From Lachnospiraceae bacterium (GTDB taxonomy: Bacteria; Bacillota; Clostridia; Lachnospirales; Lachnospiraceae), in assembly GCA_017431515.1 (NCBI GenBank), contig JAFRKV010000040.1, positions 62,001-126,000 of the forward strand: 64,000 bases of DNA. The letters are read 5' to 3'. This document shows, one piece after another, positions 21,238 to 57,643 of the stretch. Under the pieces are notes generated by a model that saw only the letters and a list, made by a program, of their open reading frames with translations, searched no databases and was not told where the DNA came from. Position 1 is the stretch's first letter; each line of letters opens with the position of its first letter. The position numbers were made by a program, and so were the translations under genes.

Positions 21238-21314
21238 ATTTTGGGGAAAAGTGCCATGCGTGTTCCACGCATGGCACTTTTGACCTCAACATCATGTGAC
21301 TTTTCCCCCAAAAT
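21238..21314. repeat. Composite palindromic element A (convergent gene end)
   Basis: A perfect 16-bp hairpin (21247-21262 with 21266-21281, loop TTC) contains the AAAAGTGCCATGCG...CGCATGGCACTTTT motif. A second outer pairing is possible between ATTTTGGGG-AAAAGT (21238-21252) and ACTTTT-C-CCCCAAAAT (21299-21314), so AAAAGT has two alternative partners. It lies between the convergent ends of the diguanylate cyclase and fumarase alpha and could terminate both. Its hairpin and its flank (reverse complement TGTTGAGGTCAAAAGT) are shared with elements at 42584, 41417 and 55747. Confidence 0.8.
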
Positions 21315-40759: not shown

Positions 40760-41404
40760 ATGATTAATGTCATGATTGCAGATGACCACGCTATGATACG
40801 CGAAGGTCTTCGAAATCTGCTTGAGCTCGACGGAGAGATCTGTGTCGTTGAAGAGGCATTCGACGGCGAGGATTGTATTCTGAAGCTACGGGAAAAGATT
40901 CCGGATGTGCTTTTGTTGGATATCAATATGCCGGTCATGAATGGACTGGAGGTTCTTGAACGGATTAAGGAACTCCATATGAAAGTGAAAGTGTTGGTGC
41001 TCACTGTCCATAATGAGGTGGAGTACTTACTCCGGGCGGTTGATTTGGGGATTAATGGATACCTTCTCAAAGATTCGGATTTTGATGATCTGCGAAAAGC
41101 GATCGTTACGGTTTCCCGTGGAGATACGTATATTCAGGAAAGCTTGATGCCGTTATTGGAAAGTAAGATGACACAGAGGACGGATGAAGAGAAGAAGATC
41201 GCGGATCTGACCGGACGTGAAATGGAGGTGCTGAAACACCTGGCTTACGGCATGTACAATAAAGAGATTGCGGAGACGTTACAAATCAGTGAGCGTACCG
41301 TAAAGAACCACGTATCCAGTATATTCAAAAAAATTGATGTGAATGATCGTACGCAAGCGGCAGTATTTGCTATAAGGAACCATTTGATTGATGTGCATAA
41401 ATAA
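40760..41404 (+). CDS. NarL/LuxR-family response regulator
   Basis: The 214-residue protein has a receiver domain (IADDHAMIREGL, phospho-Asp54 in LLLDINMPVMNG, Lys in GYLLKDSD). The LuxR-type helix-turn-helix has LTGREMEVLKHLAYGMYNKEIAETL and SERTVKNHVSSIFKKIDVNDRTQA (here in two parts SERTVKNHV and SIFKKIDVNDRTQA). It is the partner of the kinase just upstream. GGAGGGGAG precedes the ATG. Cloverleaf element B follows its stop by 12 nt. Targets are unknown. Confidence 0.93.
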   Translation: MINVMIADDHAMIREGLRNLLELDGEICVVEEAFDGEDCILKLREKIPDVLLLDINMPVMNGLEVLERIKELHMKVKVLVLTVHNEVEYLLRAVDLGINGYLLKDSDFDDLRKAIVTVSRGDTYIQESLMPLLESKMTQRTDEEKKIADLTGREMEVLKHLAYGMYNKEIAETLQISERTVKNHVSSIFKKIDVNDRTQAAVFAIRNHLIDVHK

Positions 41405-41416
41405 GTGGTAGACTAT

Positions 41417-41553
41417 GATTGGTCAAAAGTCACATGTCACGAAGTGACATTGTGACCTTTGCGCAAAGATCCGAGTGGACGTGCTAGCACGTCCATCCGG
41501 ATTTATGCGCAAAGTGCACATGCGATTTCATCGCATGGCACTTTTGACCAATC
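41417..41553. repeat. Cloverleaf element B: palindromic repeat with outer stem and three arms
   Basis: A 14-bp perfect outer stem (41417-41430 with 41540-41553, GATTGGTCAAAAGT) encloses three hairpins. Arm 1: 41434-41440/41444-41450 (ATGTCAC-GAA-GTGACAT). Arm 2, long: 41457-41514, starting CTTTGCGC, with a 20-bp palindrome tip at 41476-41495 centred on TGCTAGCA. Arm 3: 41519-41525/41531-41537 (CATGCGA-TTTCA-TCGCATG). The reverse complement of element D (55747-55877) has the same architecture with paired substitutions. No open frame of substance is present. It follows the response regulator gene. Confidence 0.9.
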
Positions 41554-41610
41554 TTTCTATTCTTTGACCCTTACCACCATAGATCATCCATAATCAATAC
41601 TCTCTCCGTC

Positions 41611-41626
41611 TGTTTCACGTGAAACA
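41611..41626. promoter_or_regulatory. parS site 1
   Basis: Perfect 16-bp ParB-binding palindrome TGTTTCACGTGAAACA, identical to the Bacillus/clostridial parS consensus, in the gap downstream of the two-component genes. Confidence 0.97.
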
Positions 41627-41679
41627 TTTTTCTACTGGTTGTGTGTTTCACAACTCTTTTTACAAAATATAGTAGAAAA

Positions 41680-41695
41680 TGTTTCACGTGAAACA
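41680..41695. promoter_or_regulatory. parS site 2
   Basis: Second perfect TGTTTCACGTGAAACA, 69 bp from the first. The flanks (TTTTCTAC and GTAGAAAA) are inverted relative to one another, so the two sites form a larger inverted repeat. A half site GTGTTTCACAAC lies between them (about 41642-41653). Confidence 0.97.
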
Positions 41696-41711
41696 TTCCA
41701 ATCAAATCCAA

Positions 41712-42551: not shown

Positions 42552-42583
42552 AAATAATCCCCCAGCAAATTTCATGATGTTGA

Positions 42584-42626
42584 GGTCAAAAGTCACAATG
42601 CCGCAAGCGGCATGTGACTTTTGACC
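42584..42626. repeat. Short palindromic element C (single-arm relative of the cloverleaf)
   Basis: A long hairpin pairs GGTCAAAAGTCAC (42584-42596) with GTGACTTTTGACC (42614-42626) and continues, after one bulged A, as ATGCCGC-AA-GCGGCAT. It corresponds to the outer stem plus one arm of elements B and D, with the long arm and the other hairpin missing. It shares the flank TGATGTTGAGGTCAAAAGT with element A. It lies upstream of the MBL gene. Confidence 0.85.
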
Positions 42627-42722
42627 CCAGCAGCATTTTATCATAGATGGACAGTGGATAACATTAAAATTCAAATACCACGAACCCATGAAAAAGATAT
42701 AGAACATTTCCCTAAAACGTGC

Positions 42723-42794: not shown

Positions 42795-43562
42795 ATGAGT
42801 AGAATTATCGCAATCGCGAACCAAAAGGGCGGCGTCGGAAAAACGACAACAGCGATCAATCTTTCAGCATGTCTTGCAGAAGAACAAAAGAAGGTATTGG
42901 TCATCGACCTGGATCCGCAGGGAAATGCAACTAGTGGGTTGGGAATTGATAAAGACGAGGCAGAGCACTCCGTTTATGATCTGATCCTCGGAGAGTGTGG
43001 GATTACAGAGAGTATTATGAAGACGGAGATCGAGGGTCTTTTCATCATTCCGTCCCATGTCAATCTGGCCGGTGCGGAGATCGAGCTTTTGGATGTAGAG
43101 GAAAAAGAATATGTGCTTCGCAAGTCCGTCAAGACCATCCGCGATGATTATGATTTTATCATCATTGATTGTCCCCCATCATTGAATATGTTGACCATCA
43201 ATGCGATGACAACGGCTGATACGATTCTCGTCCCGATCCAATGCGAGTATTACGCGCTGGAAGGTCTTTCCCAGTTGATTCACACCATCAATCTGGTACA
43301 GGAGCGTTTGAATGAGGATCTGATCATCGAGGGTGTTGTTTTCACCATGTTCGACGGACGGACGAATCTTTCCCAGCAGGTTGTGGAGAACGTGCGTGAC
43401 AATCTGAAAACAAAGATCTATGAGACGGTCATTCCGCGGAATATCCGCCTGGCGGAGGCGCCCTCCTACGGATTGCCGATTGAACTGTTTGATGCAAACA
43501 GCAGCGGCGCCAAGAGCTACAGGTCTTTGGCAAAGGAAATCATGGAAAGGAAGGATATCTGA
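42795..43562 (+). CDS. parA: Chromosome-partitioning ATPase ParA/Soj
   Basis: The 255-residue protein has the deviant Walker A KGGVGKTTTAINLS, switch I DLDPQGNATSGLG, Walker B DFIIIDCPPSL and the C-terminal ParA pattern RLAEAPSYGLPIELFD. It binds DNA non-specifically as an ATP dimer and is stimulated by ParB; in Firmicutes Soj also regulates DnaA. The ATG at 42795 has AAAGGAAG upstream; the longer frame is not supported. parB follows after 1 nt. Confidence 0.95.
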   Translation: MSRIIAIANQKGGVGKTTTAINLSACLAEEQKKVLVIDLDPQGNATSGLGIDKDEAEHSVYDLILGECGITESIMKTEIEGLFIIPSHVNLAGAEIELLDVEEKEYVLRKSVKTIRDDYDFIIIDCPPSLNMLTINAMTTADTILVPIQCEYYALEGLSQLIHTINLVQERLNEDLIIEGVVFTMFDGRTNLSQQVVENVRDNLKTKIYETVIPRNIRLAEAPSYGLPIELFDANSSGAKSYRSLAKEIMERKDI

Positions 43563-43563
43563 T

Positions 43564-44466
43564 ATGGCACCAAAAAAAGGCGGATTGGGAAAAGGACTTG
43601 ACTCACTGATCCCGCAGAAAGCAGAAACCGCACCAGGAAAAGGAAAGACGTCAGCGGAAGGGAAGGATATTCTGCTGGTGGATATCAATAAAATCGAGCC
43701 GAATCCGGATCAGCCCAGAAAGAATTTCGACGAAGATAAACTCATCGAATTATCAGAGTCCATCAAGCAGCACGGGATTATGAATCCGCCGCTGGTATTG
43801 GAGAAAAAAGGCTATTATATGATCATCGGCGGGGAGCGTCGTTGGAGAGCCTCCAAGATGGCAGGTCTGAAAAAAATTCCTGTCATTGTCAAGAAAGATC
43901 TGACGGATCAACAGGTTGCAGAGTGGGCGCTGATCGATAACATCCAGCGTGAAGATATCAATCCGATCGAGCAGGCGGAAGCATATCAAAAGCTCTTAAG
44001 TGATCATGACTGGACACAGGATAAACTGGCGGAGGTTGTCAGCAAGAGCAGGACGGCGGTGACTAACTCTCTTCGATTATTAAAGCTGGATGAACGTGTG
44101 CGGCAGATGGTGATTGATGAAATGGTTTCCACGGGACACGCACGGGCTCTGCTTGGCGTGACTGACGGAGAAAAACAGTTTACTCTTGCTCAGCAGATTT
44201 ATGATGAAAAAATGAGTGTCCGTGACACGGAAAAGCTGGTGAAAAAGGTGCAATCCCAGAAAGAGACCACGGATAAGCAGAAGAAGAGCACGAATCCCCA
44301 GTTAGACGCTGTGTATGCTAAGCAGGAAGAAAAAATGAAGCAGCTCTTCGGGACGAAAGTCACAATTTCCCGGAAAAACGAGAAAAGCGGGAAGATCGAG
44401 ATTGAATATTATTCACCGGAGGAACTGGAACATTTACTGGAAATGTTATACACTATAAAGAAGTAA
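43564..44466 (+). CDS. parB: Chromosome-partitioning protein ParB/Spo0J
   Basis: The 300-residue protein begins with the conserved PKKGGLGKGLDSLIP (ParA-stimulating tail). It has the ParB CTPase domain (NPDQPRKNFDED, GERRWRASKMAG), a helix-turn-helix domain (LAEVVSKSRTAVTNSLRLLKL, given as LAEVVSKSRTAVT and NSLRLLKL) and a C-terminal dimer domain. It loads at parS, clamps and spreads on DNA, and recruits SMC. Two perfect parS sites lie about 1.9 kb upstream of its start. The start at 43564 is just after the parA stop. Confidence 0.95.
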   Translation: MAPKKGGLGKGLDSLIPQKAETAPGKGKTSAEGKDILLVDINKIEPNPDQPRKNFDEDKLIELSESIKQHGIMNPPLVLEKKGYYMIIGGERRWRASKMAGLKKIPVIVKKDLTDQQVAEWALIDNIQREDINPIEQAEAYQKLLSDHDWTQDKLAEVVSKSRTAVTNSLRLLKLDERVRQMVIDEMVSTGHARALLGVTDGEKQFTLAQQIYDEKMSVRDTEKLVKKVQSQKETTDKQKKSTNPQLDAVYAKQEEKMKQLFGTKVTISRKNEKSGKIEIEYYSPEELEHLLEMLYTIKK

Positions 44467-46734: not shown

Positions 46735-48424
<1,690 letters not shown>

Positions 48425-55746: not shown

Positions 55747-55877
55747 GTGTCAAAAGTGCCATGCGATGAAATCGCATGTGTACTTTGCGTGAGGAGACGC
55801 TCTGACATGCTAGCATGTCGAGGCGTCTCTTCACGCAAAGGTCACAATGCCACTTCGTGGCATGTGACTTTTGACAC
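55747..55877. repeat. Cloverleaf element D: inverted second copy of element B
   Basis: The outer stem GTGTCAAAAGT/ACTTTTGACAC (55747-55757, 55867-55877) encloses three arms. One is CATGCGA-TGAAA-TCGCATG (55760-55778). The long central arm CTTTGCGTGA...TCACGCAAAG (55783-55840) is 18 bp and continues into the 16-bp palindrome GACATGCTAGCATGTC (55804-55819). The last is ATGCCAC-TTC-GTGGCAT (55847-55863). Read on the minus strand it matches element B arm for arm, and most differences occur as complementary pairs. It lies 15 nt after the DUF308 gene. Confidence 0.9.
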
Positions 55878-56911: not shown

Positions 56912-57643
56912 ATGAAAAGAAGAGTCATAGCGCTTTTGATGACCATGTCACTCGCGGCAGCAGTCCTTTCCGGATGTGGCAGCGCGGTGCCGGCAACTCA
57001 GACATCTGCAGCGCCTGCAGCGACAGAAGCAGCGCCTGCGGCCACAGAGGCAGCACCGGCAGCAACGGAGGCAGCGCCTGCAGCCACAGAGGCAGCAACA
57101 GAAGCGGCGCCGGCAGCAACGGAAGAAGAGCTGGATCCGAGTGTCAACAACATTGATCAGGATGCGCTGAAGCAGGATTTTATCAAGTCCATTGAGAATT
57201 CGGATTATGAGGATGTCAAGCTTCCGGAAGATAAGGACATTCAGATTACCGTGGTTTCTGACTACAAGAACTATGAAAGTCTGGAGTACCTGACGTATCT
57301 GTTCTTCGGGGCAAACGGCATCAACTATGCGCAGTATTACACCGCAGACCGCGGAACAGGCGATGTCATCACGCTGGATCAGCTGGTGAAATCCGATCAG
57401 GCTACGTATGACGCCATTTCCGACAACATCCGCAGCCAGATGGAAGAGCAGATGCAACAGGATGATACCGTAAAGTATTTCACGGATGACTTCAAAGGTG
57501 TTGACAAGGATTCTCTGTGGTATCTCGGAAACGACGGAAGTCTGATCATCACCTTCCCGGAGGCAACGATCGCACCGCATTCCGACGGAATCATCAATTT
57601 TACAATCCCGAGCGATGTGTTTGACCCGACAAAGGTTCTGTAA
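56912..57643 (+). CDS. Lipoprotein with Ala-Pro-Thr-Glu repeats and DUF3298-like domain
   Basis: The 243-residue precursor has a lipobox LSGC (Cys22). A low-complexity tether of AAPAATE units (about 32-70) follows. The C-terminal domain has WYLGNDGSLIITFPEATIAPHSDGIINFTIP (here WYLGNDGSLIITFPEATI and GIINFTIP), matching the DUF3298 pattern seen in RsiV-type proteins, which can bind lysozyme. Here no sigma factor is adjacent. AGGAGG precedes the ATG and a bidirectional terminator follows. Likely surface-exposed; function unknown. Confidence 0.8.
   Translation: MKRRVIALLMTMSLAAAVLSGCGSAVPATQTSAAPAATEAAPAATEAAPAATEAAPAATEAATEAAPAATEEELDPSVNNIDQDALKQDFIKSIENSDYEDVKLPEDKDIQITVVSDYKNYESLEYLTYLFFGANGINYAQYYTADRGTGDVITLDQLVKSDQATYDAISDNIRSQMEEQMQQDDTVKYFTDDFKGVDKDSLWYLGNDGSLIITFPEATIAPHSDGIINFTIPSDVFDPTKVL
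57009..57125 (+). repeat. Tandem repeat encoding (AAPAATE)n
   Basis: Degenerate 21-bp units (such as GCAGCGCCTGCAGCGACAGAA-like, split here as GCAGCGCCTGC and AGCGACAGAA) in the lipoprotein tether; five to six copies, one shortened. Confidence 0.85.

What the first reader, a model, noticed from the sequence alone, without database searches (positions are those of the whole stretch)
41417..41553. Cloverleaf repeat family: a four-way-junction intergenic element with paired sequence changes
Elements B (here) and D (55747-55877, inverted) share a 3-arm plus outer-stem fold. Aligned in the same orientation, the differences come as complementary pairs. ATGTCAC/GTGACAT becomes ATGCCAC/GTGGCAT. GGACGTGC/GCACGTCC becomes GACATGC/GCATGTC. 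The outer stem TTGGTC/GACCAA becomes TGTGTC/GACAC(G). The lower long arm is largely rewritten yet still paired. The hairpin loops GAA and TTTCA and the TGCTAGCA tip are conserved. Covariation of this kind points to selection on the fold (RNA or single-stranded DNA), or to a mobile element copied through a folded intermediate. I know of no named element with this shape.
Basis: partly seen in the sequence, partly recalled or inferred. Interest (0 to 1): 0.85.

Follow-up and report, generated by a model that had tools for sequence, protein, structure and literature searches.

The report
Cloverleaf-folding miniature transposon in Lachnospiraceae
The element is one of dozens of copies of a small, gene-free jumping DNA, scattered between genes in several bacteria of one family, whose sequence keeps changing in matched pairs so that nearly every copy can still fold into the same three-armed cloverleaf; why the fold is kept is not known.

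Summary
B (core 41421-41549) and D (55748-55876, minus) belong to a repeat family with 38 full-length copies in this draft genome (one of them weak) and 27 in a congener, RUG12461 (Lachnospiraceae). A covariance model also finds it in four other genera of the family (33 loci in one) and, in a capped scan of 391 genomes of the class, only in the own genome. 36 of 37 aligned copies fold into outer stem plus three arms (37 of 37 with DNA parameters; D is the RNA exception). Of 52 pairs, 26 show changes on both sides, beyond shuffled and slid controls. Across genera most arm pairs are rewritten while pairing stays.

It is best read as a MITE, a non-autonomous DNA transposon: relatives carry terminal inverted repeats with 7-bp (G287) or about 8-bp (G223) target duplications, window element C a 6-of-7 one, and five sites are filled in one species and empty in the other. 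G-U and A-C cells are about equally common, so no strand is preferred. At 13 shared sites the core is flipped in nine. No transposase with these ends was found; selection or template switching as the cause of covariation stays open. Rfam and the papers searched held no such element.

The parts
41417..41553 (+). Element B, whole stem-closed unit (locus-specific outer stem plus core)
   Evidence: sequence; fold; copy of the family at C53:103421-103549
41421..41430 (+). B outer stem, 5' strand (GGTCAAAAGT)
   Evidence: helix 1, 99.1% of cells paired
41431..41454 (+). B arm Y (loop GAA)
   Evidence: helix 2, 98.9% paired; loop counts
41457..41514 (+). B middle arm M (base CTTTGC/GCAAAG, tip GCTAGC)
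   Evidence: helices 3 and 4; base TTTGC/GCAAA shared across genera
41516..41539 (+). B arm X (loop TTC)
   Evidence: helix 5, 98.1% paired
41540..41549 (+). B outer stem, 3' strand (ACTTTTGACC)
55748..55876 (-). Element D, full-length copy in reverse orientation
   Evidence: (C53:117748-117876); fold
42576..42634 (+). Element C, single-arm (Y-type) member with ends GATGTTGAGGTC / GACCCCAGCAGC; the orthologous site in the congener holds a full three-arm copy
42569..42575 (+). Left target-site duplication of C (ATTTCAT)
   Evidence: 6 of 7 identical to the right copy
42635..42641 (+). Right target-site duplication of C (ATTTTAT)
21247..21293 (-). Element A, single-arm (X-type) member; its region is absent from the congener (105 bp against 8 bp)

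Best explanation
B and D are copies of a non-autonomous, MITE-like DNA transposon. Shown: dozens of dispersed copies; terminal inverted repeats with target-site duplications in relatives; presence at some sites and absence at the orthologous sites of the congener. The roughly 110-bp inside of the core, between the outer-stem strands, is three hairpin arms that could extrude as a cruciform or fold on single-stranded DNA. Inferred: copies are moved by a transposase encoded elsewhere that recognises the ends; insertions that land between genes just after stop codons survive; after insertion the core is at times exchanged or inverted by recombination or template switching between copies and arms, while the three-arm geometry and the TTTGC/GCAAA base of the middle arm are kept. 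My favoured reason for keeping them is that the folded DNA itself is needed for mobilisation or is bound by a protein. That last step is inference only.
For: Copies: among 78 collected hits, 38 in G000 and 27 in G001 are 120-135 nt long; the 38 include one weak hit (C51:261136, 37.6 bits) and leave out C5:32265 (129 nt, 90.5 bits), which I set aside by hand. Relatives by covariance model: G223 33 loci (one partial), G287 15, G059 5, G407 2, G003 1. Ends: in G223, 37 TIR-bounded units have matching 8-mers outside TTTGAGTTTCC...GGAAACTCAAA at 55.7% identity against 32.1% (sd 3.0) with partners shuffled, 8 of 37 perfect; this is the best of 12 offset/length settings tried. In G287, of 8 full-length copies with both ends read, 7-bp duplications are perfect in 4 (TTGTTAC, ATATCAT, ATTTATT, ATTTGAT) and 6 of 7 in 2. 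The TIR pattern gives 80 hits in three genomes, 0 when read backwards. Filled/empty pairs between G000 and G001: C53:129076 (159 bp against 8), C31:11948 (196 against 12), C32:3918 (172 against 18), A (105 against 8), and the reverse case G001 C10:96742 (199 against 5). Fold; cross-genus pairs. Strand symmetry: 40 G-U to 32 A-C.
Against: No autonomous element or transposase with the same ends was found, though only parts of the genomes were read. Target duplications are not significant in the pooled set of 28 GATG-type units, 22 of them from G000/G001 (7 bp: 0.429 against 0.376, z 1.9); two full-length G287 copies match at only 5 and 3 of 7, and two short G287 units (L217, L215) at 2 and 5 of 7. 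The outer stems are locus-specific (58 distinct 8-mers in 63 copies), which is odd for a transposon end and needs decay with re-pairing. The five filled/empty sites are not polarised by an outgroup. 13 full-length sites are shared between two species about 76-86% identical in most syntenic blocks, so the copies are less mobile here than the copy number suggests. TIR families differ between genera (GATGTYGGGG with 7 bp; TTTGAGTTTCC with about 8 bp), so the cloverleaf could be a passenger of two different MITEs.
Confidence: 0.74

Rival explanations
1. The covariation is not selection on a fold. Replication template switching within imperfect inverted repeats copies one arm onto the other (making paired changes in one step) and sometimes inverts the spacer, so pairing is kept mechanically in a neutral mobile element.
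For: Template switching is reported to homogenise inverted-repeat arms and invert spacers (PMC8604942, abstract and passages). Core orientation differs at 9 of 13 orthologous sites, in 3 of them with a middle arm of the same family (judged by eye). Outer stems are re-paired in locus-specific sequence (97% paired at positions 2-4 against 51-85% with shuffled partners). Blocks of adjacent pairs change together (X arm GCGAT/ATCGC, GCGTG/CACGC, GCGCA/TGCGC).
Against: Small-arm loops are not seen inverted in the 37 aligned copies: X loop TTC in 36, GAA in 0; Y loop GAA in 31, TTC in 0. Three arms and the middle-arm base are kept across genera although sequences are rewritten, which a neutral copying process does not demand. 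Flipped sites mostly carry cores that are not each other's closest relatives (similarity ranks 1, 21, 20, 4, 8, 9, 18, 14 and 24 of 27), so simple spacer inversion is not enough.
Confidence: 0.4
2. The element is an RNA-level device: an intercistronic or 3'-end hairpin array that ends transcription in both directions or sets mRNA stability, retained for that use.
For: 54 of 72 stop codons facing a copy lie within 29 nt of the core (median 18.5, simple ORF calls). The X arm, and on the other strand the Y arm, is followed by TTTT (sequence). The terminator-like scan lists an arm of B on the minus strand and C on both strands (4 found in the region, 1.6 expected from shuffles). Other MITEs are reported just after stop codons and can affect mRNA stability (PMC2674063 passages; PMC2229807 passages).
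Against: No strand preference in the fold (40 G-U, 32 A-C). Orientation in codirectional contexts is 23 to 13. Some copies lie between closely spaced codirectional genes, where a strong terminator would be costly (C53:129076: about 16 bp from stop to next ATG in the empty allele, read). In G223 17 of 19 distances to a facing stop are 33-509 nt.
Confidence: 0.2
3. A REPIN/RAYT-like or IS200/IS605-derived element moved as single-stranded DNA by a Y1 (HuH) transposase: two inverted hairpins, Y and X, around a spacer.
For: REPIN-like layout. Y1 transposase matches occur in G000 (1) and G001 (3, at contig ends) and not in G002 or G003, which have no copy and one distant copy.
Against: The 3,366-bp locus around the G000 Y1 gene holds neither CAAAAGT nor ACTTTTG. 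Target duplications and terminal inverted repeats in relatives do not fit Y1 transposition (recalled knowledge).
Confidence: 0.05

Closest known systems
Prokaryotic MITEs in general (e.g. QMITE2 of Coxiella burnetii)
   Same: Terminal inverted repeats (23-29 bp in QMITE2), 7-9-bp direct repeats, core of 113-145 bp, intergenic, stable folded transcript (figure legend and passages of PMC10969869).
   Different: Here the inside is three covarying arms, and the fold is traceable across genera with rewritten sequence; that review's main text holds neither 'cruciform' nor 'cloverleaf' (0 occurrences each).
ERIC/IRU/RU-1 (127 bp, enterobacteria)
   Same: Size, intergenic and co-transcribed placement, TIR and TSD (PMC2229807 passages and table).
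   Different: Repeat elements other than CIR are described there as having no arms, only a stem loop from 5'-3' end pairing; ERIC has TA termini; different hosts.
CIR repeats (Caulobacter/Brucella)
   Same: Intergenic repeat with more than one arm (PMC2229807 passages).
   Different: CIR has two arms and a linker, a GANTC motif, and no TIR in that paper's table.
REPIN/RAYT system
   Same: Inverted pair of palindromes, many copies (PMC3116915, search listing and abstract start only; layout recalled).
   Different: Target duplications here; no linked RAYT found.

Membership tests
MITE (non-autonomous DNA transposon) | Short and without a transposase gene | tested here: met
   Full-length core 120-135 nt; no ORF of 100 aa or more overlaps B or D; shorter ORFs not examined
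MITE (non-autonomous DNA transposon) | Terminal inverted repeats | tested here: met
   GATGTYRRGG... in G287/G000/G001, 80 hits with 0 for the backward control; TTTGAGTTTCC in G223
MITE (non-autonomous DNA transposon) | Target-site duplications | tested here: met
   G223 8 bp, 0.557 against 0.321 sd 0.030, best of 12 settings; G287 7 bp, 4 of 8 full-length copies perfect; window C 6 of 7. Not significant in the pooled set of 28 GATG-type units (z 1.9); not tested for B and D, whose ends are not of the GATG type
MITE (non-autonomous DNA transposon) | Presence/absence at orthologous sites | tested here: met
   5 filled/empty sites between G000 and G001; not polarised by an outgroup
MITE (non-autonomous DNA transposon) | Ends shared with an autonomous element that moves it | tested here: inconclusive
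   No inward TIR pair around a recognised transposase in the stretches read; genomes only partly read and ORFs there not run against a family library
REPIN/RAYT | Associated Y1 transposase whose flanks carry the repeat | tested here: not met
   Locus of the only Y1 gene found in G000 lacks the element's ends; G000 is 81.8% complete
REPIN/RAYT | No target duplication | tested here: not met
   Duplications in relatives; criterion recalled
Any Rfam 15 family | Match at gathering score | tested here: not met
   Only two tRNAs in the window; 12 weak matches in 41300-41700, all under their gathering scores
ERIC/RU-1 | TA at the termini and a single end-to-end stem | tested here: not met
   Ends and three arms differ; criteria from PMC2229807 passages

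The most novel reading that the evidence does not exclude
The three-arm DNA fold itself is the working part: a family-wide structural module, kept by selection in cruciform or single-stranded form and carried by at least two unrelated sets of transposon ends (GATGTYGGGG with 7-bp and TTTGAGTTTCC with about 8-bp duplications), that is exchanged and flipped between copies inside fixed, locus-specific stems, in effect a structure-defined mobile module whose sequence is largely free.
Probability: 0.25. Interest if true: 0.82.

Novelty: new variant of a known kind. Interest (0 to 1): 0.6.

Why it matters
One review of small mobile repeats describes nearly all bacterial MITEs as single long stem loops (PMC2229807, passages). 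A MITE family whose inside keeps a three-arm fold across genera while its sequence is rewritten in matched pairs gives a countable natural experiment (dozens of copies; orthologous filled, empty and flipped sites) for separating selection on DNA structure from template-switch copying. It is also a caution for RNA discovery: strong covariation, even with compensatory changes in half of all pairs, does not by itself prove a functional RNA.

Tried and rejected
Insertion into pre-existing hairpins was my first idea, because copies' flanks extend the stem; at two empty sites of the congener (C53:129076 and A) the stem sequence is absent, so there the outer stem came or went with the element. Simple in-place inversion as the sole cause of flips: rejected as sole cause, since flipped cores mostly are not the closest relatives of their orthologues. 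The alternative long-hairpin fold (D's RNA minimum): 92.7% of cells paired against 97.2%, and its Y-X cross pairs show no change on both sides and several often-broken pairs. Y1/RAYT mobiliser: ends do not match. Candidate autonomous elements: a G223 C10 end pair 1,450 bp apart and 1.5-1.6-kb spans in L039 and L033 showed ORFs that I did not recognise as transposases; these ORFs were not run against a family library. Plasmid collection: no match. IMG/VR, one exact degenerate pattern: 0. Class-wide sample: only the own genome among 391. Literature: MITE plus Lachnospiraceae gave 3 papers, none on this by title and abstract start; the listings named no such element that I could recognise.

Caveats on counts: gene calls were simple ORF picks and miscall some contexts (D was called divergent although the family-matched ORFs on both sides are plus-strand), so I lean only on stop-codon distances. 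A first, cruder context count was superseded. One search dropped 8 of 71 rows whose ends lacked AAAG/CTTT. Alignment A1 holds 37 copies; partial, extended and weak hits were left out. Alignment A2 was made from 43 chosen loci, fitted to model R1, and reduced from 94 rows to 48 by keeping the best strand (one of the 48 is the fragment C). In the family and class scans only 8 candidates per genome were scored, under stricter filters, so absences are not firm.

Full report
What is there. Two smaller relatives lie in the same window: A (21247-21293, minus), which has only the X arm, and C (42576-42634), which has only a Y-type arm. The window is G000:C53:62001-126000 of a 2.35-Mb draft (81.8% complete). 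A congener held here as G001 corresponds to MAG RUG12461, 'uncultured Lachnospiraceae bacterium': contig lengths and copy positions agree.

Copy number and range. blastn with B gives about 40 places in G000 (58 matches counting both strands). A covariance model R1 built from 37 aligned copies gives 94 matches, counting both strands, in G000, 57 in G001, 2 (one locus) in G003 and 0 in G002 (its list is cut). Among the 78 hits that I collected, 38 in G000 and 27 in G001 are 120-135 nt long; one of the 38 is weak (C51:261136, 37.6 bits), and C5:32265 (129 nt, 90.5 bits) was set aside by hand. In 397 genomes of the own family R1 rings in 6 (G000, G001, G059, G223, G287, G407), and a closer scan gives 33 loci in G223 (one partial), 15 in G287, 5 in G059 and 2 adjacent ones in G407. 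In 391 genomes drawn from the class, only the own genome rings. Both wide scans scored 8 candidates per genome. By blastn, 2 of 116 genomes rang, the own one included. The family is thus patchy and, as sampled, confined to one bacterial family.

Fold. 36 of 37 copies have three hairpins in the RNA minimum-energy fold; D is the exception. With DNA parameters 37 of 37 do. 97.2% of 1,907 cells form a standard pair (shuffled 88.8, sd 0.4); 26 of 52 pairs have changes on both sides (shuffled 14.2); covariation score 0.273 (shuffled 0.113); 0 of 500 shuffles reach any of these three, while the count of further pair types is not exceptional (50 against 46.5; 39 of 500 reach it). Slid structures fall to 25-52% paired. 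The rival long hairpin gets 92.7%, and its own Y-X pairs carry no double changes. Shuffles do not remove relatedness, so the cross-genus comparison matters more: among G000, G287, G223 and G059 the majority pair differs at 8 of 10 Y-arm and 10 of 10 X-arm pairs, while 49 of 52 pairs stay Watson-Crick in 35 or more of the 41-48 rows counted (alignment fitted to R1, which favours the structure). Kept in sequence is the base TTTGC/GCAAA of the middle arm; its tip is GCTAGC in 27 of 37 G000 copies, and GCTAGC or variants such as GCCAGC, GCTTGC, GCGAGC and GCTCGC in the relatives read.

Strand. Of non-Watson-Crick cells 40 are G-U and 32 A-C. An A-C on this strand is a G-T on the other, so neither strand is favoured. 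This argues against a single functional RNA sense and for DNA, or for either strand.

Mobility. G287 copies run GATGTYGGGG...CCCCRACATC. Of 8 full-length copies with both ends read, 7-bp duplications are perfect in 4, 6 of 7 in 2, 5 of 7 in 1 and 3 of 7 in 1; two copies with one end lost (L185, L187) were left out, and two short units (L217, L215) match at 2 and 5 of 7. G223 copies sit in a larger unit, TTTGAGTTTCC...GGAAACTCAAA; 37 such units of 59 to 204 bp have matching 8-mers outside (0.557 against 0.321, sd 0.030; best of 12 settings), and the same ends also bound units of about 60 bp without the cloverleaf. Window C has ATTTCAT/ATTTTAT. Pooled GATG-type units (28, of which 22 from G000/G001) give only z 1.9 at 7 bp. 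Between G000 and G001 five sites are filled in one and empty in the other. I take this as DNA transposition by an enzyme acting in trans; that enzyme was not found.

Shared sites. Thirteen full-length sites are shared between G000 and G001, B and D among them; at C a single arm in G000 faces a full copy in G001. Orientation is flipped at 9 of 13, including B. Core similarity is highest of all 27 G001 copies for 4 of 13 pairs (three of the four unflipped ones, and C12/C27); mean 0.812 against 0.784 permuted, p 0.010. Middle arms are of the same family in 6 pairs (3 flipped) and different in 7 (6 flipped) (judged by eye from identities 0.79-0.93 against 0.57-0.68; random mean 0.70). Some pairs share their outer stem although the core is flipped (C31:10571/C8:107010). 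So sites are old, but cores seem to be replaced or inverted in place.

Outer stems. In 63 copies (8 of 71 dropped) there are 58 distinct 8-mers, yet positions 2-4 beyond CAAAAG pair in 97% (51-85% with shuffled partners), decaying toward background near position 10. Unshared sites tend to have GATGTTGA-like stems and shared ones do not; I judged this by eye and did not test it.

Position. 54 of 72 facing stop codons lie within 29 nt of the core, median 18.5, as reported for other MITEs (PMC2674063, passages). In G223 the distances are longer.

Why is pairing kept? Template switching makes arms identical and inverts spacers (PMC8604942, abstract and passages). It explains re-paired outer stems and flips well. 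It does not explain why no inverted small loop is seen in 37 copies (X loop TTC 36, Y loop GAA 31) or why three arms and the middle-arm base persist across genera. I lean to a mixture: mobility plus a constraint on DNA shape, with template switching as the way paired changes arise.

Known or new. No Rfam 15 family matches at gathering score, and the weak matches near B lie under their gathering scores. PMC2229807 states that bacterial repeat elements other than CIR have no arms but one end-to-end stem loop (passage). My paper searches listed no such element; most subscription papers are not in that library. I file it as a new variant of a known kind, the MITE.

Noticed in passing
window 41611-41626 and 41680-41695: Two identical 16-bp palindromes TGTTTCACGTGAAACA just downstream of B (0 expected by chance), also present in the G001 alignment; they resemble parS (recalled), and a ParB gene (HTH_ParB, ParB_N) lies at 43420-44466.
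   Followed up: partly
L109 4351-7430 (G000:C31) against L110: A 2.8-kb segment is inverted between G000 and G001, and a cloverleaf copy (C31:7288) sits at one edge of it.
   Followed up: no
L039 1501-1682, L074, L088 (G001:C10:96742): Three copies are enlarged to 182, 182 and 178 nt; in the two whose sequence I looked at (L039; C10:96742) the extra sequence, with further hairpins, is in the middle arm.
   Followed up: no
L185, L218, L226 (G287), similar motif in L215: Copies cut off next to a repeated sequence resembling GTTACTATTCACAG, perhaps the end of another mobile element.
   Followed up: no
L039 2640-2982 (G000:C15): The right end of an element seems to form the C-terminus of a 113-aa ORF.
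   Followed up: no
L136 (G407:C9:242018-242264): The middle-arm sequence lies in two adjacent copies with long repeated hairpins rather than as a dispersed copy.
   Followed up: no
window 48038-48385 and 56987-57137: Short tandem-like direct repeats (12-bp spacing; 9-21-bp spacing) inside predicted ORFs.
   Followed up: no
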